Below, piece by piece: positions 866 through 6,325 of a DNA stretch of 7,080 nucleotides. The notes below the pieces were generated by a model. That model saw only the letters and a list, made by a program, of their open reading frames with translations, was not told the DNA's origin and ran no database searches. Every line of letters begins with the position of its first letter. The first letter of the stretch is position 1. A program made the translations under genes and the position numbers. Source of the DNA: an uncultured Arcobacter sp. (lineage in GTDB: Bacteria > Campylobacterota > Campylobacteria > Campylobacterales > Arcobacteraceae); assembly GCA_913062735.1 (NCBI GenBank), contig CAJXWI010000128.1, forward strand, positions 1 through 7,080. The letters run 5' to 3'.

Positions 866-2113
866 TTGAAAATACTTATTGTAGATGACAGTACAACATT
901 ATTAAATGGCTTGGTTTCTGTATTAGAAAATATAGATTCATTAAAAATATTTACTGCAAAATCAAAACAAGAATGTGCGAATCTTTTACTTCAAGAAAAA
1001 GGAAAATTTGATATTGCTATTTTAGATTTAGGTCTACCAGATGCTCCAGATGGTGAGATAATACCTTTTATGGAAAAGTTTTCAATTCCTAGTATTATTT
1101 TAACAGCCAAACAATATGATCAAAATAATCCCTTATATAAACATGACTTCATTATAGATTATGTAATTAAAAACGGTTCTTATGCCTTAGACTATACCGC
1201 TTATGTTGTAGAAAGATTTATTGAAAATTCAAAAGTTGATGTGCTTGTAGTTGATGATTCCCGATCTTTTTCTGCAAAAATAAAGCACTTATGTAAACGA
1301 TATAATATCAATACTATTCTAGCTTCATGTGCAGAAGATGCAATCAAAATAATGAAAAGCAAAAATAAAATAAAATTAATCTTAGTTGATTATATAATGC
1401 CTGGAATGAATGGTTTAGAACTAACTGCACTAATGCGTAAAAAATATAAAAAAGATGAGATATCTATAATTGCTCTGTCTTCAATAAAAGATAAAGATGT
1501 TGTTGCAAAGTTTTTGAAATACGGTGCTAATGATTTTATTTATAAAGACTTCTCAGACGAAGAATTTTATGCAAGAGTAAATTCCAATCTTGATATTATT
1601 AAGCTTTTTGAACTAAGCCGTGATAGGGCAAATAAGGATTACATGACAGGAATGTATAACAGACGTTATTTATTTGAAAAAGGCACAAGAATTTATGAAA
1701 AAACGAAAAAGGTAGATGACTATATTTCCTGCGCAATTATTGATATAGATAAGTTTAAAAACATCAATGATACCTATGGTCATGATATTGGGGATATAGC
1801 AATTAAGTATATTCCTAAAATTTTAAATACATTTTTAGATGACAATAATTTGATATCCAGAGTAGGTGGAGAAGAATTTTGTATTATCAGTAAAAATATC
1901 AGTGAAAGAGAAATTTTAGACCTTTATGAACAAATTAGAGAAGCATTTGAAGAATCTGTTCTTACAATTGATGATCTAGAACTTAATTTCACCGTATCTA
2001 TTGGTCTTACTACATCTTTTGGCTCTTCTTTTGAAGACATGCTTAAAAAAGCAGATTTAGCTTTATATGAAGCAAAAGAAACAGGAAGAAACAAAGTAGT
2101 GCTTCTAAAATAA
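866..2113 (+). CDS. Response regulator with two receiver domains and GGDEF diguanylate cyclase
   Basis: A cytoplasmic 415-residue protein predicted to make cyclic di-GMP from two GTP when phosphorylated. Receiver 1 (about 1-120) has acidic pair D7 D8, phospho-acceptor D54 (LDLGLP), T80 and K102. Receiver 2 (about 124-240) has D130 D131, D175 (VDYIMPGMNG), S205 and K227, so both look phosphorylatable. The GGDEF domain (about 250-415) begins with DYMTGMYNRRYLF (258-270) and has D293 and N301 D302 for metal and GTP binding, the active-site loop GGEEF at 334-338, and the C-terminal ALYEAKETGRN signature. The residues where the inhibitory I-site RxxD would lie (325-328) read DDNN, so canonical product inhibition is probably absent. 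No membrane segment is seen. The start is TTG: an in-frame stop lies at 836-838, no ATG lies between, and receiver strand 1 (ILIVDD) begins at residue 3. The layout resembles PleD. No partner kinase is in the window. Confidence 0.95.
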   Translation: MKILIVDDSTTLLNGLVSVLENIDSLKIFTAKSKQECANLLLQEKGKFDIAILDLGLPDAPDGEIIPFMEKFSIPSIILTAKQYDQNNPLYKHDFIIDYVIKNGSYALDYTAYVVERFIENSKVDVLVVDDSRSFSAKIKHLCKRYNINTILASCAEDAIKIMKSKNKIKLILVDYIMPGMNGLELTALMRKKYKKDEISIIALSSIKDKDVVAKFLKYGANDFIYKDFSDEEFYARVNSNLDIIKLFELSRDRANKDYMTGMYNRRYLFEKGTRIYEKTKKVDDYISCAIIDIDKFKNINDTYGHDIGDIAIKYIPKILNTFLDDNNLISRVGGEEFCIISKNISEREILDLYEQIREAFEESVLTIDDLELNFTVSIGLTTSFGSSFEDMLKKADLALYEAKETGRNKVVLLK

Positions 2114-2140: not shown

Positions 2141-2785
2141 TTATTTAATTATTTCAACAACTTCACTTGAAGAAAGTCTTAATTGAGTACTTTGCTCATT
2201 GATTCTGTACCCAAAAGGAAGTACCACGGACACTTGGTATTTACTCGTATCAAGGTTTAATATTTTTTCAAGATTTTCTTTTTCAAAACCTTCAATAGGA
2301 CAAGAATCAATTCCAATACTTGCAGCTGCTGTCATCATATTAGATACAGCTAAGTACGTTTGTTTAGATGTCCATGCATAAATATTTTCATCAGAACTTA
2401 AGGTATCACTTAAGTGATTTGCATATAAATTTAAGTAAAAATCATATTTTTCTTGTGGCATATCACGTCTTGCAAAACGTTTAGAGGGGATACTAGATTC
2501 AGGTTTTACATCATAAATTTTAGCAAGTACAATTACTAATTCACTTGCACTTGTAACTTGAACTTGACCCCAAGATACTTCTTTAATCTTTTCTTTTAAT
2601 TCTTCGTTTTTAATTACTAAAAATTTCCAAGGTTCCATACCAAAAGAGGAAGGCGATTTACGTCCTGTTTCTAAAATAAAATCAAAATCTTTTTCATCAA
2701 TTTGTTTTGTATCATCAAATACTTTACACGCATGTCTAAAATCCATTGCTTCAGTAAACAGTTCTTTTTTTGTTTCTTTATTCAT
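2141..2785 (-). CDS. NAD(P)H-dependent nitroreductase, NfsB-like FMN oxidoreductase
   Basis: A 214-residue flavoprotein of the nitroreductase family. These are usually FMN-bound homodimers that reduce nitroaromatics, quinones or flavins with NAD(P)H. Family features: the FMN-contacting N-terminal segment FRHACKVFD (16-24), SPSSFGMEPWKF (44-55), the WTSKQTYLAVSNMM helix (138-151), the PIEGFE segment (163-168), and the C-terminal VVLPFGYR strand (187-194). The order and spacing fit E. coli NfsB (217 residues) closely. The physiological substrate cannot be told from sequence. The ATG at 2785 is preceded by AAGGAAAAG. The gene lies 70 bp downstream of the MdaB-like gene in the same direction, with no convincing promoter or terminator between, so the two are probably co-transcribed and controlled by the adjacent HxlR regulator. 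Confidence 0.92.
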   Translation of the reverse strand: MNKETKKELFTEAMDFRHACKVFDDTKQIDEKDFDFILETGRKSPSSFGMEPWKFLVIKNEELKEKIKEVSWGQVQVTSASELVIVLAKIYDVKPESSIPSKRFARRDMPQEKYDFYLNLYANHLSDTLSSDENIYAWTSKQTYLAVSNMMTAAASIGIDSCPIEGFEKENLEKILNLDTSKYQVSVVLPFGYRINEQSTQLRLSSSEVVEIIK

Positions 2786-2855
2786 TTCTTTTCCTTTTAT
2801 TTTAGTTCAAAATAACCTTGTTATATTTATTTCAAGAATATTTTTACGTCATTTT

Positions 2856-3446
2856 TTAATTAAAGTTGTTCTTTAATGTTTTTTTAAAGTCTAACAACTC
2901 TTTTTTAACATCCAATTCACTTTTAAAAATATCATGCATCGCATAACTCTCTAATGCAGCAGCCCCACAAAATTGGAAAGTTTTATGAGTAGCAATATTG
3001 GCTTCATCTAAAGACAAACCATCAAAAAAACCATCCGTATTTGAGAATTCACTAGAAGGACAATTATAAGTAAAACTTAACATATATTTTTTACCTTGCA
3101 TTAACCCTCCACTTCCATACCTCTTAGTACTGTCTTTTGAACTTCTTCCATCATTTACATACGTAACCTTCCCGTATCCGGCTGAAAAAATCTCATCTAT
3201 GTATTTTTTGGTAATCCAAGGCACTCCCATCCAATAAACAGGATATTGAAATAAAATATAATCTGCCCATGCGAACTTTTCTACTTCATCATTGATTTTA
3301 TAATCACTTTCAACTACACTGTGTTGTACTTCAAACTCTTTTTCATTAAAAACTTCTACTGCTTCATCAATTAAGATTTTTGTCAATTTTCCCTCAGCAA
3401 TACCTTCATATCTCTGATGACCATTGATAATTAAAACTTTTTTCAT
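2856..3446 (-). CDS. mdaB: NADPH:quinone reductase, MdaB-type flavodoxin-fold protein
   Basis: A 196-residue soluble protein of the flavodoxin-like NAD(P)H dehydrogenase family. MdaB proteins carry FAD and reduce quinones by two electrons, avoiding semiquinone formation, and contribute to oxidative-stress resistance in Helicobacter. Sequence landmarks: KVLIINGHQRY at the N-terminus (flavin phosphate loop), SDYKINDEVEKFAWADYILFQYPVYWMGVPWITKKYID (about 47-84), the block YGSGGLMQGKKYMLSFTYN (about 110-128), and the FQFCGAAAL segment near 157-165. This agrees nearly segment for segment with what I recall of E. coli MdaB, and the length is equivalent. The start at 3446 has GAGGGAAA directly upstream. 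It is the first gene of a likely two-gene operon with the nitroreductase, divergent from the HxlR gene. A candidate -10, TATACT, lies at 3514-3509. Confidence 0.93.
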   Translation of the reverse strand: MKKVLIINGHQRYEGIAEGKLTKILIDEAVEVFNEKEFEVQHSVVESDYKINDEVEKFAWADYILFQYPVYWMGVPWITKKYIDEIFSAGYGKVTYVNDGRSSKDSTKRYGSGGLMQGKKYMLSFTYNCPSSEFSNTDGFFDGLSLDEANIATHKTFQFCGAAALESYAMHDIFKSELDVKKELLDFKKTLKNNFN

Positions 3447-3607: not shown

Positions 3608-3970
3608 ATGTATTTAATTAATAATAAAGAATTTAATTGTGCTATTAACGTAACATTAGATATTTTCAATGACAGATGGAAACTATCTATTATTTATCAT
3701 TTATTAGCGGGGAATAAGAGATTCAAAGAACTTAATGAAGAGATTTGTGAAATAACACAAAAAACATTGACAGTTAAACTAAAAGAACTGGAAGAAAAAA
3801 ATATTATTAACAGAGAAGTTTTTGCTCAAGTTCCTCCTAAAGTAGTGTATTCACTAACACCTAGTGGAGAAAAATTAAAGACTGTTGTAGCTGAAATGTA
3901 TGAATGGGGAGTTGAATATGTAGAAGTGCATGGAAAAATAACTCCAAACACTTGTTCACTAAAAGATTAA
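3608..3970 (+). CDS. HxlR-family winged-helix transcriptional regulator
   Basis: A 120-residue DNA-binding protein covering the whole HxlR-type winged helix. Family landmarks: C11 near the N-terminus followed by the core helix with DRWKLSIIYHLL (22-33), RFKEL (38-42), the recognition region ITQKTLTVKLKELEEKNIINR (49-69), the wing with VPPKVVYSLTPSGEKL (75-90), and the C-terminal dimerisation helix ending EWGVEYV (99-105). Cysteines are C11, C47 and C116. In YodB and HypR of Bacillus an N-terminal cysteine at the C11 position senses quinones or disulfide stress, so redox sensing is a reasonable inference here, not a demonstrated fact. The divergent arrangement with mdaB and a nitroreductase suggests that this operon is the target, together with autoregulation. 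The ATG has AAGGAAA upstream. The gene converges on thiD with a 5-bp gap and no clear terminator. Confidence 0.94.
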   Translation: MYLINNKEFNCAINVTLDIFNDRWKLSIIYHLLAGNKRFKELNEEICEITQKTLTVKLKELEEKNIINREVFAQVPPKVVYSLTPSGEKLKTVVAEMYEWGVEYVEVHGKITPNTCSLKD

Positions 3971-3975
3971 AATAA

Positions 3976-4788
3976 CTAAACTTTTATAATCTTATACATA
4001 TGATTAATGGGTCCAGTATTCTTTCCTATTTTATACTTAGAACCTGAATTGATAGCTTCATTTACATAAGTATTTGCTTTTTTACAAGCACTTGTAATAT
4101 CAAGACCAAGTGCTAAATAAGAAGCAATAGCTGAAGATAAAGAACAACCCGTTCCATGAGTATTTAAGGTATCAATCTTTTTATTTTTAAAATACGTAAA
4201 TTCTTTTGTTTTTATACAATACAAACAATCAATACTAAAACCTACTTCATACTCCAAAGCTTTAATTAAAACATATTTACAACCAAAAGTTCCTAGATAA
4301 ATACAGGCTTCTTTTGCATCCTCTTTTGTATTAATATCTTTTTGAAATAATAATCTTGCCTCATGTAAGTTAGGGGTAATAATATCTGATAAAGAAAACA
4401 TGTCGTTTTTTAATGACAAAATAGCATCTTCTTGAAGTAAAACGGCACCTGAGGTTGAAACCATAACAGGATCAAGTACAATATTTTGTATTTTGTTTTT
4501 CTTTAAAAAATCACTTACTTCTTTTATTAAAGTACTTTTATGAAGCATTCCTATTTTTACTGCATCGCATTTAATATCTTCATAGTTTGTATCAAGCTGA
4601 GCTTTTACAAACTTTTCATCAATATCTAGGATTTCATTTACGCCGCAGGTATTTTGAGCAGTAAGTGCTGTTAACGCACTTAAGGCATAAACCCCCAAGG
4701 ATGTAGCAGTTTTAATATCTGCTTGCATCCCTGCCCCACCACTGGAATCAGATCCAGCGATGATTTGAAGTGTTTTATACTCTAACAT
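3976..4788 (-). CDS. thiD: Hydroxymethylpyrimidine/phosphomethylpyrimidine kinase
   Basis: A 270-residue cytoplasmic ribokinase-fold enzyme that phosphorylates HMP and then HMP-P to HMP-PP, the pyrimidine half of thiamine. Sequence features: the substrate-binding AGSDSSGGAGMQADIKT at 11-27, KIGML at 78-82, DPVMVSTSG at 106-114, TPNLHEA in the middle, and the anion-hole/catalytic HGTGCSLSSAIA at 211-222, with C215 in the position of the family's conserved cysteine. Length matches stand-alone ThiD of E. coli (266), and no ThiE domain is fused. The start ATG at 4788 lies inside the last codons of the upstream symporter gene, with a 14-bp overlap in a different frame and only a weak purine stretch (AAGAAGCGA) as ribosome-binding site. 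Translation is therefore probably coupled to the symporter. Both genes lie under the TPP riboswitch upstream. Confidence 0.96.
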   Translation of the reverse strand: MLEYKTLQIIAGSDSSGGAGMQADIKTATSLGVYALSALTALTAQNTCGVNEILDIDEKFVKAQLDTNYEDIKCDAVKIGMLHKSTLIKEVSDFLKKNKIQNIVLDPVMVSTSGAVLLQEDAILSLKNDMFSLSDIITPNLHEARLLFQKDINTKEDAKEACIYLGTFGCKYVLIKALEYEVGFSIDCLYCIKTKEFTYFKNKKIDTLNTHGTGCSLSSAIASYLALGLDITSACKKANTYVNEAINSGSKYKIGKNTGPINHMYKIIKV

Positions 4789-6187
4789 TTTTCGCTTCTT
4801 TTGAGAAAAGCATGGTTAAGAAAAAAGAGAAAACAACTGAAAGAATAAAAGAGAAAAACAGTTGATTTTCACCCAGTAATGTAGGAACTGCTTTAGCTCC
4901 TCCTAAAAATGATACCAAGATACCATCTGTGAAATTAAGTCCTGGAAACAATAAAGCACCTATTAGTAAAGAAATAATACCAATTAAAAAAGCCTTTGGA
5001 TATTCTTTTTTTCCTAGAATTGCAAAAATAGCTGGTCCTATAAGCGCACAACAAATTAAATCAGCAACTAAAAATAAGTAAAATACGTCATAACCTTTTG
5101 AAGCAATGTAATATACAGGAAAACAAGTAAGCACAATCACCCATCTGTAAAAAGACAGATTTTTAGAGTTTTCTTCTTTGTTAAGAACAAACAAGGATGC
5201 AATACCATTTAACAATGAATCACTAGAAGATAATACTAAAGATACGACAAATAAAATTAAGATGAAAATAGTAGCTGGACTTTTTAATGCCAATAAATCA
5301 AAAAGTGCAAGATTAGCGTCTGCTCCTAATAATCCAGTACTTTTGGCATATAAACCTGTCATTCCTAAAATAAAGATAACTATAAACACAATTAGAGCAG
5401 AAATTAGAAAAGAACGTTTTACCACATCTTTTTTTAAAGCATATACTCTTTGCCACGAAGTATGATTAAATACTTCTGTACATAAAACAGCAATAATAAG
5501 TGTTAAACCAAAAGCCACATGATTAAAGTTTGTAAAGTCACTACTCATAGTACTAGCAAAATCAAAACTTTCAAAACTCTTATTCCATGGAATGAAATAA
5601 AATAAGCACAATAAAACAAACATAATTAACATAAATTGAATAAAATCCGTTTTTATAGATAAACGCAAACCACCTAATAAAGAATAAGATGCTGTAGCAA
5701 GTAAGATAATGAAAGCACCTAACCCTAAAGAATAACCACCATAAGACTGTAATACTTTAGCAACGGCTGTCATTTCTGCACATAAGAAAATAAACATATA
5801 AAAAATTGTACACACAAGTAAAAGATTTTTATACGATTTTCCAAGTTTTACTTCTGTGTATTCAATTAACGAAGAAGCATCAGGCATAGCATTTCTAATT
5901 TTAAGACCTAAAAAAGCCAAAGCAAGTAAAGGCAAAGAAGAAGCTAATGCATAACCAAAAACACTGGGTAATCCACCCCATAAAGCTGAAGAAGCAGGTG
6001 AAAACAAAATCCACACACCTAAAGCTGATGCAGTTAGTGTTGAAACTCCCAAGGTAGAAGAAACAGCATCTTTGTAAATAATCAATGAATCGTTGGAGTT
6101 TTTAGCTTTTTTATACGAATAAAAAGCAAAACCTAAAAATAGAATAATAGAGGCAATTAAGCCTTGAGAAACTAATGTTGAAAACAT
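4775..6187 (-). CDS. Sodium:solute symporter family transporter, predicted thiamine-precursor importer
   Basis: A 470-residue integral membrane protein of the SSS family, with about 13 predicted hydrophobic segments (roughly 6-26, 45-65, 73-93, 121-143, 152-172, 183-201, 222-240, 258-282, 304-322, 345-362, 366-390, 398-414, 440-461). Family marks: YSLLGGLRLSIKTDFIQ (168-184), TSWQRVYALKKD (243-254), and the sodium-site serines in LSSSDSLLN (319-327). Sequence alone does not give the substrate. Context does: a TPP riboswitch lies directly upstream and thiD overlaps its end, so the cargo is predicted to be hydroxymethylpyrimidine, thiamine or a related pyrimidine. Comparative-genomics work on thiamine regulons named a TPP-regulated SSS-type transporter ThiV, as I recall; whether this protein is orthologous is not known, so no symbol is given. 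The ATG at 6187 is preceded by AAGGA (6197-6193), which can be hidden in a hairpin (see the sequestor entry). Confidence 0.88.
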   Translation of the reverse strand: MFSTLVSQGLIASIILFLGFAFYSYKKAKNSNDSLIIYKDAVSSTLGVSTLTASALGVWILFSPASSALWGGLPSVFGYALASSLPLLALAFLGLKIRNAMPDASSLIEYTEVKLGKSYKNLLLVCTIFYMFIFLCAEMTAVAKVLQSYGGYSLGLGAFIILLATASYSLLGGLRLSIKTDFIQFMLIMFVLLCLFYFIPWNKSFESFDFASTMSSDFTNFNHVAFGLTLIIAVLCTEVFNHTSWQRVYALKKDVVKRSFLISALIVFIVIFILGMTGLYAKSTGLLGADANLALFDLLALKSPATIFILILFVVSLVLSSSDSLLNGIASLFVLNKEENSKNLSFYRWVIVLTCFPVYYIASKGYDVFYLFLVADLICCALIGPAIFAILGKKEYPKAFLIGIISLLIGALLFPGLNFTDGILVSFLGGAKAVPTLLGENQLFFSFILSVVFSFFLTMLFSKEAKNVRV

Positions 6188-6190
6188 TAT

Positions 6191-6221
6191 AATCCTTTTT
6201 TAATATTTAAGCTTAAGGATT
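6191..6221 (-). promoter_or_regulatory. Ribosome-binding-site sequestor hairpin (riboswitch expression platform)
   Basis: On the minus strand AATCCTT (6221-6215) is the exact reverse complement of AAGGATT (6197-6191), which contains the AAGGA ribosome-binding site of the symporter. Pairing would hide the site and block initiation. No U-tract follows the hairpin, so control is probably at translation, not at termination. The intervening and flanking sequence includes the palindrome TTAAGCTTAA (6207-6216), which can also pair with the 5' edge of the aptamer. Confidence 0.6.
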
Positions 6222-6242
6222 TTAAAATTAATTTTATCAAAT

Positions 6243-6317
6243 AACTTTTTCCTACGCTGGTACAAACCAGATCAGGTATAAGGGTATGGTCTCAGTCAGA
6301 ATGACACCCCTAAAGCT
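6243..6317 (-). ncRNA. TPP riboswitch (THI element) aptamer
   Basis: The minus strand carries the conserved thiamine-pyrophosphate aptamer blocks in order: AGGGGUG (6311-6305), CUGAGA (6296-6291), ACCCUU near 6286-6281, CCUGAUCUGG (about 6277-6268), and CCAGCGUAGGA (about 6260-6250). The closing helix P1 can form between ACUUU-like bases at 6317-6312 (AGCUUU) and AAAGUU at 6248-6243, six pairs with one G-U. The P5 stem CUGG/CCAG encloses a six-base loop. Binding TPP should stabilise P1 and lower expression of the symporter and thiD downstream. Canonical motifs make this call near certain; the helix limits are hand-drawn. Confidence 0.97.
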
Positions 6318-6325
6318 TATTGTGA

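What the first reader, a model, noticed from the sequence alone, without database searches (positions are those of the whole stretch)
3976..6320. TPP-riboswitch-controlled SSS symporter coupled to thiD: candidate HMP or thiamine importer
The sequence shows a canonical TPP aptamer, a 470-residue SSS transporter and thiD on one strand with a 14-bp gene overlap. Known thiamine-related importers are mostly of other families (ThiBPQ, ThiXYZ, CytX, PnuT, ThiT). An SSS member here is less common, and its substrate is not fixed by homology. The pairing with an HMP kinase, and not thiamine kinase, argues for HMP or a related pyrimidine.
Basis: partly seen in the sequence, partly recalled or inferred. 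Interest (0 to 1): 0.7.

Follow-up and report, generated by a model that had tools for sequence, protein, structure and literature searches.

The report
Vitamin B1 precursor import-and-activation operon
A bacterium has a small operon, switched off by vitamin B1, that most likely takes up and activates one half of the B1 molecule; the importer belongs to a known family, but here it seems to add salvage to bacteria that already make B1 by a route that cannot use that half from outside.

Summary
In detail: on the minus strand lie a TPP aptamer (6321-6232), a 470-aa sodium:solute symporter (6187-4775) and canonical ThiD (4788-3976, 14-bp overlap). The symporter is no orphan. Its closest kin found outside Campylobacterota are the TPP-switched symporters of SAR11 bacteria (36-41% identity), that is ThiV/SSSP, already tied to HMP uptake in print. 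All 6 campylobacterotal copies examined carry the switch. A Shine-Dalgarno-blocking hairpin suggests translational control.

Something new rescues it: 10 of 11 relatives tested encode ThiD2, a kinase reported to act on HMP-phosphate but not free HMP. In the window's genus ThiD occurs only beside ThiV (3 of 4 genomes); the fourth has ThiC and ThiD2 but neither ThiV nor ThiD. Thiamine pyrophosphokinase was not found (0 of 11), nor ThiM in that genus. Best reading: an HMP-salvage cassette laid over a ThiD2-based de novo pathway. Substrate and coupling ion are inferred; the window's own genome is not held. New member of a known kind, in an informative setting.

The parts
6326..6354 (-). promoter-like site TTGATA-17-TATAAT (11 of 12), ending 4 bases before the aptamer
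   Evidence: consensus match only: 3 sites of 9/12 or better found on both strands, 3.2 expected by chance in the region
6232..6321 (-). TPP riboswitch aptamer (THI element)
   Evidence: RF00059, 69.1 bits, E 1.9e-12
6309..6318 (-). P1 5' strand AAGCUUUAGG, able to pair with the anti-Shine-Dalgarno segment when the aptamer is unfolded (inferred)
   Evidence: 9 of 10 pairs (40 of 2000 shuffles as good); letters invariant in 6 of 6 copies
6215..6221 (-). anti-Shine-Dalgarno AAUCCUU
   Evidence: 7 of 7 pairs with the SD in 5 of 6 copies (same letters in 4, GAUCCUU with one G-U pair in G208, not in L029); 143 of 2000 shuffles as good for the window
6209..6218 (-). segment CCUUAAGCUU, complementary to P1 5' strand; overlaps the anti-SD by 4 bases
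   Evidence: most letters conserved in an otherwise variable leader
6191..6197 (-). Shine-Dalgarno AAGGAUU, 3 bases before the ATG at 6187
   Evidence: letters invariant in 6 of 6
4775..6187 (-). thiV-type sodium:solute symporter, 470 aa (predicted HMP importer)
3976..4788 (-). thiD, canonical HMP/HMP-P kinase, 270 aa; start overlaps thiV by 14 bases

Best explanation
A TPP-repressed HMP-salvage operon. When TPP is scarce the leader leaves the thiV Shine-Dalgarno site open; ThiV, an SSS-fold symporter, imports free HMP (4-amino-5-hydroxymethyl-2-methylpyrimidine, possibly also its aminomethyl analogue) with a cation, probably Na+; ThiD, whose start overlaps the end of thiV and which is therefore probably translationally coupled, phosphorylates HMP to HMP-P and HMP-PP, which ThiE joins to thiazole phosphate. 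When TPP is plentiful the aptamer folds, the anti-SD is freed to pair with the SD, and import stops. In this lineage the cassette supplements a de novo route (ThiC) whose HMP-P kinase is probably ThiD2, so the cassette's ThiD would mainly serve salvage. Shown by computation: aptamer, gene order, ThiV kinship, and ThiC and ThiD2 presence and TPK absence in relatives. Inferred: substrate, ion, mode and direction of the switch, ThiD2's role here, and that the window's own genome is like its nearest relatives.
For: ThiV kinship: the nearest relatives found outside Campylobacterota are SAR11 symporters, 36.3-40.6% identity; with the window protein as query E. coli PutP gave no hit and PanF and ActP only E>6 hits, and the tree separates the ThiV set (Campylobacterota plus SAR11) from PutP, PanF, ActP and two other SSS proteins (95/96). 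TPP switch upstream of every ThiV copy examined in Campylobacterota, 6 of 6, and in 6 of 6 SAR11 loci scanned at relaxed threshold; CTGAGA..ACCY motif in 80 of 80 loci against 23 of 1600 random windows, which may include the true site. Published: SAR11 HTCC7211 takes up 3H-HMP with Km 9.5 pM-1.2 nM, little affected by other pyrimidines, cannot use exogenous thiamin, and ThiV is the likely carrier (PMC11452348, passages read). ThiD2 in 10 of 11 relatives; ThiD absent over cut-off from G002 and G035, which have ThiC and ThiD2; in the class 155 of 255 ThiD2 genomes have no ThiD at E<=1e-30. Within the genus ThiD is present only beside ThiV (3 of 3 genomes with ThiV; 0 of 1 without). ThiM absent from the 4 genus genomes and TPK from 11 of 11. 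G208, another ThiV genome, has its ThiD fused to a TenA domain, which is a salvage-type domain.
Against: No uptake data for this protein, and the SAR11 assignment itself rests on whole-cell uptake plus inference; no thiV mutant was seen in what I read. ThiV is not next to ThiD in L029 nor in the held flanks of the 79 other loci; in G208 the only ThiD over cut-off is on another contig, though the contig with thiV ends 0.3 kb after it. So the pairing is shown in one genus only. The genus comparison is small: one genome without the cassette (G002, 96% complete, 4% contaminated), so an assembly gap cannot be excluded. In G005, G006 and G018 ThiD coexists with ThiD2 with no salvage partner recognised among the neighbours scanned, so ThiD beside ThiD2 need not mean salvage. 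The fungal SSS protein Dur31 carries thiamin (PMC5997356). The switch model is weak in places: the predicted unconstrained fold keeps the SD paired in 5 of 6 leaders; forcing the alternative helix costs 2.1-6.1 kcal/mol in those five, and in the window and G001 the SD then still is mostly paired, with another segment (mean unpaired 0.24 and 0.32).
Confidence: 0.75

Rival explanations
1. ThiV imports thiamine itself (or thiamine as well as HMP), as the fungal SSS protein Dur31 does; thiD is only an operon passenger.
For: Dur31/NCU01977, an SSS protein with a TPP riboswitch, is a thiamin transporter in Candida (PMC5997356, abstract and passages read). One gut-genome survey lists ThiV among B1 rather than HMP transporters (PMC6593275, passage read).
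Against: No thiamine pyrophosphokinase (PF04263) in 11 of 11 relatives, with the search ringing in 7 of 14 control genomes; ThiK-type kinases were not tested. SAR11 with ThiV cannot use exogenous thiamin (PMC11452348). In the genus ThiD and ThiV are present or absent together (4 of 4 genomes).
Confidence: 0.12
2. ThiV imports a pyrimidine breakdown product of thiamine (aminomethyl- or formylaminomethyl-pyrimidine) that is turned into HMP by TenA, with HMP a secondary substrate.
For: G208 has ThiV and a TenA-ThiD fusion; McRose 2014 says that Carini et al. proposed HMP or AmMP for this family (PMC4260697, passage).
Against: In SAR11 the AmMP effect on HMP uptake was small, under 15% (PMC11452348). 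TenA was not searched in the window's genus.
Confidence: 0.1
3. The SSS protein carries an unrelated solute and sits under a TPP switch by accident of insertion.
For: SSS is a broad family and the Pfam match is below cut-off.
Against: TPP switch upstream of the homologues examined in two phyla and conserved M20-thiV-thiD order in 3 relatives.
Confidence: 0.03

Closest known systems
ThiV/SSSP of SAR11 (SAR11_0811, HTCC1062; PB7211_402, HTCC7211)
   Same: SSS family, TPP switch directly upstream, 36-41% identity to nine SAR11-type homologues over most of the length (the two named proteins themselves were not in hand); conserved Y79, E138 and F240-x-H242 are compatible with the published signature residues
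   Different: HTCC7211 is an HMP auxotroph with ThiV as its likely sole supply (PMC11452348), and no thiD was found in the held flanks of 79 SAR11-type loci; the window's relatives have ThiC, and in the genus thiV is paired with thiD
thiE-thiM-thiD-SSSP operon of Alkaliphilus oremlandii (PMC4260697, passage read)
   Same: SSSP, thiD and a TPP switch in one operon
   Different: that operon holds thiE and thiM too; no ThiM was found in the 4 genus genomes
Dur31/NCU01977 thiamin transporter of fungi (PMC5997356)
   Same: SSS-type transporter with a TPP riboswitch
   Different: transports thiamin; riboswitch acts on splicing; no sequence comparison was made here
TenA / THI5-like / ThiM / ThiD cluster of G022 and a similarly laid out one in G009
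   Same: TPP-switched pyrimidine salvage with canonical ThiD, in the same family of bacteria
   Different: ABC-type transporter parts instead of a symporter; includes ThiM
ThiD2 (PF17792)
   Same: also catalyses the HMP-P to HMP-PP step
   Different: a separate Pfam family of about 124 positions; reported to act on HMP-P but not on HMP or its toxic analogues (PMC12345177, passages read)

Membership tests
TPP riboswitch (RF00059) | score over the family's gathering threshold with the whole aptamer matched | tested here: met
   69.1 vs 54.3 bits, model 1-105
ThiV/SSSP | closer to SAR11 ThiV than to other SSS families | tested here: met
   blastp 237-264 bits to nine SAR11-type copies; 48.1 bits or less to the five other SSS proteins, PutP no hit; tree split 95/96. 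Algal SSSP and Methylobacillus ThiV sequences were not in hand; outgroup branches are very long and the tree does not settle whether the Campylobacterota branch lies inside or beside the SAR11 rows
ThiV/SSSP | TPP riboswitch or thi genes in the locus | tested here: met
ThiV/SSSP | published signature residues: Tyr at SiaT 78, acidic at 139, Phe at 254 followed by His or polar | tested here: inconclusive
   Y79, E138 and F240 are invariant in the 16 proteins; F240 is followed by N-H here and H-Q in SAR11-type rows. No residue-level SiaT alignment was made; the starts of the model and SiaT ranges are compatible. The legend says Asp at 139, the window has Glu
ThiV/SSSP | uptake of HMP | not testable with these tools
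   needs a transport assay
Sodium:solute symporter (SLC5 type) | match to the Pfam SSF model PF00474 | tested here: inconclusive
   E 5.7e-4, 19.3 bits, below the curated cut-off of 22.8; many of the 120 homologues listed carry the Pfam label
Sodium:solute symporter (SLC5 type) | SSS-type fold | tested here: met
   top matches DUR3, CHT1, NIS, SMCT1, vSGLT, SiaT
Sodium:solute symporter (SLC5 type) | sodium coupling | tested here: inconclusive
   S320/S321 align with an S-S pair of vSGLT; that this is its Na2 site is recalled. DUR3, the best structural match, is named a urea-proton symporter
Canonical ThiD (TIGR00097) | score over the equivalog cut-off | tested here: met
   277.6 vs 204.95 bits
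Canonical ThiD (TIGR00097) | both HMP and HMP-P kinase activity | not testable with these tools
   needs an enzyme assay
Dur31/SSSQ thiamin transporter | orthology to NCU01977/Dur31 | not tested
   no sequence in hand

The most novel reading that the evidence does not exclude
ThiD2-based bacteria are closed to free HMP, and so protected against HMP antivitamins such as bacimethrin. The thiV-thiD operon is a two-gene cassette, gained and lost as a unit, that re-opens this door under TPP control. Carriers should salvage HMP and be sensitive to bacimethrin; close kin without it (such as G002) should be unable to use HMP and be resistant. Canonical ThiD would be dispensable for B1 synthesis in carriers.
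Probability: 0.45. Interest if true: 0.6.

Novelty: new member of a known kind. Interest (0 to 1): 0.4.

Why it matters
It places ThiV in bacteria whose relatives also make HMP, outside its best-studied setting in auxotrophs, and it gives a natural setting in which the same step is covered by two unrelated kinases, one open and one reported closed to outside pyrimidine. That makes the proposed trade-off of ThiD2 (safety from antivitamins against loss of HMP salvage) testable by comparing close relatives. Across the class the two kinases tend to replace each other (155 ThiD2 only, 126 ThiD only, 100 both, 16 neither of 397; not corrected for kinship).

Tried and rejected
Window's own genome: not held, so thiC, ThiD2, ThiM and TPK were judged from relatives. 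An unrelated-solute reading was rejected (switch upstream of the homologues examined). Reading ThiD as proof of HMP was rejected as stated, then restored by the ThiD2 result. Transcription terminator in the leader: none found by the consensus scan. The gathering-threshold scan of 10 SAR11 loci found no TPP switch; 6 of those 10 were rescanned at relaxed threshold and all 6 had one at 35.5-48.5 bits; the other 4 were not rescanned. The Fisher test ignores kinship, so its p-value is not quoted as evidence. A paper holding both ThiD2 and ThiV: none in the held library (one search was too broad to tell anything). A paper recalled as the source on ThiD2 was looked up by a DOI from memory and is not held, so ThiD2 biochemistry is second-hand from PMC12345177 (passages). 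Carini 2014 and Rodionov 2002 were not read; they are cited through PMC11452348 and PMC4260697. Passages of PMC3847290 tell of a TPP switch before thiC in Campylobacter jejuni and were not used further.

Full report

WHICH SSS FAMILY. The protein search lists 120 of 3827 hits: a first group at 68-79% identity over the full length (one at 99%, one fragment at 86%), then a sharp drop to a large group at 38-41%. Blastp with the window protein gives 237-264 bits to nine SAR11-type proteins, 48 and 41 bits to two other SSS proteins of relatives, E>6 for E. coli ActP and PanF, and no hit for PutP; with a SAR11 protein (L030) as query PanF reaches 54 bits and PutP 47, against 200-249 for the Campylobacterota set. 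A tree of 24 rows splits Campylobacterota plus SAR11 from the five other SSS proteins (95/96); its outgroup branches are very long, the program warns of long branches meeting, and it does not settle whether the Campylobacterota set lies inside or beside the SAR11 rows. A TPP switch sits just upstream in 6 of 6 SAR11 loci scanned at relaxed threshold (35.5-48.5 bits), though 0 of 10 reached the Rfam gathering score. The core motif CTGAGA..ACCY lies upstream in 80 of 80 loci, against 23 of 1600 random windows of the same loci, which may include the true site. This is the ThiV/SSSP family: PMC11452348 (passages and section 18) reports HMP uptake by SAR11 HTCC7211 and names ThiV as the likely carrier; PMC4260697 (passages) describes the wider SSSP/SSSQ group and says that SSSP was termed ThiV by Rodionov et al. 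2002.

DISTRIBUTION. ThiV is rare in this class: 2 of 397 genomes at E<=1e-30 (G001 and G208). In the set of 60 relatives it is strong in 3 of 4 same-genus genomes (G001 95%, G003 76%, G004 75%) and absent from G002 and from the 56 others apart from three remote SSS hits. All six campylobacterotal copies examined have the TPP switch: window, G001, G003, G004, L029 and G208. The order M20 peptidase, thiV, thiD, HxlR regulator is shared by G001, G003 and G004 with the window. In the other two, L029 has no ThiD next to thiV, and in G208 the contig ends 0.3 kb after thiV while its only ThiD over cut-off lies on another contig.

HOW THE SWITCH PROBABLY WORKS. In 5 of 6 leaders a 7-pair hairpin joins the Shine-Dalgarno sequence AAGGAUU to an upstream AAUCCUU (GAUCCUU with one G-U pair in G208); L029 lacks it. 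Taken singly, 122-220 of 2000 shuffles of each leader do as well; the argument is that it recurs. The P1 5' strand AAGCUUUAGG of the aptamer can pair with a segment that overlaps this anti-SD: 9 of 10 pairs in the window, G001 and G208 (27-67 of 2000 shuffles as good), 8 of 10 in G003, G004 and L029 (517-752 of 2000), and for L029 the script's best segment lies elsewhere in the leader. Most letters of this segment are invariant in 6 of 6 copies within an otherwise variable leader. This suggests a translational OFF switch: TPP holds P1, frees the anti-SD and closes the SD. Against it: the forced open form is 2.1-6.1 kcal/mol weaker in the five leaders with the hairpin and 9.4 in L029, and in the window and G001 the SD stays mostly paired even then (mean unpaired 0.24 and 0.32; 0.46-0.66 in G003, G004 and G208). 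The mechanism is inference. No terminator was found.

WHY HMP. That is weak by itself, because ThiD normally also converts HMP-P to HMP-PP in de novo synthesis, and all 10 relatives tested have ThiC; in G001 thiC is followed by thiG and thiH and a second TPP-switch match adjoins its 5' end (47.2 bits, below the gathering score). However, the search for ThiD over 11 relatives found none over cut-off in G002 and G035. That led to the test of ThiD2 (PF17792), which is present in 10 of 11, including G002 and G035 (the ORFs of G001 and G002 confirmed). [quoted passage not shown]). In the class, 255 of 397 genomes have ThiD2 and 226 of 397 have ThiD at E<=1e-30: 100 both, 155 ThiD2 only, 126 ThiD only, 16 neither. 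ThiD thus appears dispensable where ThiD2 exists, and in the four genus genomes it appears only beside ThiV. ThiM is absent from those four and thiamine pyrophosphokinase from 11 of 11, which leaves no TPK route for imported thiamine; ThiK was not tested. Two TMP-TENI proteins are present in each genus member, so the HMP-PP made by ThiD can probably be used. In G208, which has ThiV, ThiD is fused to a TenA domain; in G022 a TPP switch stands before TenA, a THI5-like binding protein, ThiM and ThiD, with ABC-type permease and ATPase genes just upstream. Against this, G005, G006 and G018 have ThiD and ThiD2 with no salvage partner recognised among the neighbours scanned, and the genus comparison rests on one genome without the cassette.

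VERDICT. ThiV-type HMP importer plus HMP kinase under TPP control, supplementing de novo synthesis. The family and the HMP idea are known; a ThiV-ThiD cassette on a ThiD2 background was not found in the held literature (no paper holds both ThiD2 and ThiV). The held library lacks most subscription papers.

Noticed in passing
window 2141-3446 (minus) and 3608-3970 (plus): A nitroreductase and a flavodoxin-like oxidoreductase gene lie divergent to an HxlR-type regulator (below the cut-offs of the redox regulators RrpA/RrpB): a probable redox-stress set. G003 and G004 have the regulator next to the GGDEF gene without these two oxidoreductases, so the pair was gained or lost here.
   Followed up: partly
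window 866-2113 (plus): Response regulator with two receiver domains and a GGDEF domain; homologues stand next to the HxlR gene in G003 and G004.
   Followed up: no
class-wide: ThiD2 and canonical ThiD tend to exclude each other in this class (155 ThiD2 only, 126 ThiD only, 100 both, 16 neither of 397): it looks like replacement by an unrelated kinase, not corrected for kinship.
   Followed up: partly
L150 (G009) and L149 (G022): G022 has a TPP switch before TenA, THI5-like binding protein, ThiM and ThiD, with ABC-type transporter genes just upstream; G009 has a similarly laid out cluster with ThiM, ThiD and ThiE, and is the only one of 11 without ThiD2.
   Followed up: partly
L152:6865-8247 (G208): TenA-ThiD fusion protein of 460 aa in a genome that also has ThiV and ThiD2.
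   Followed up: no
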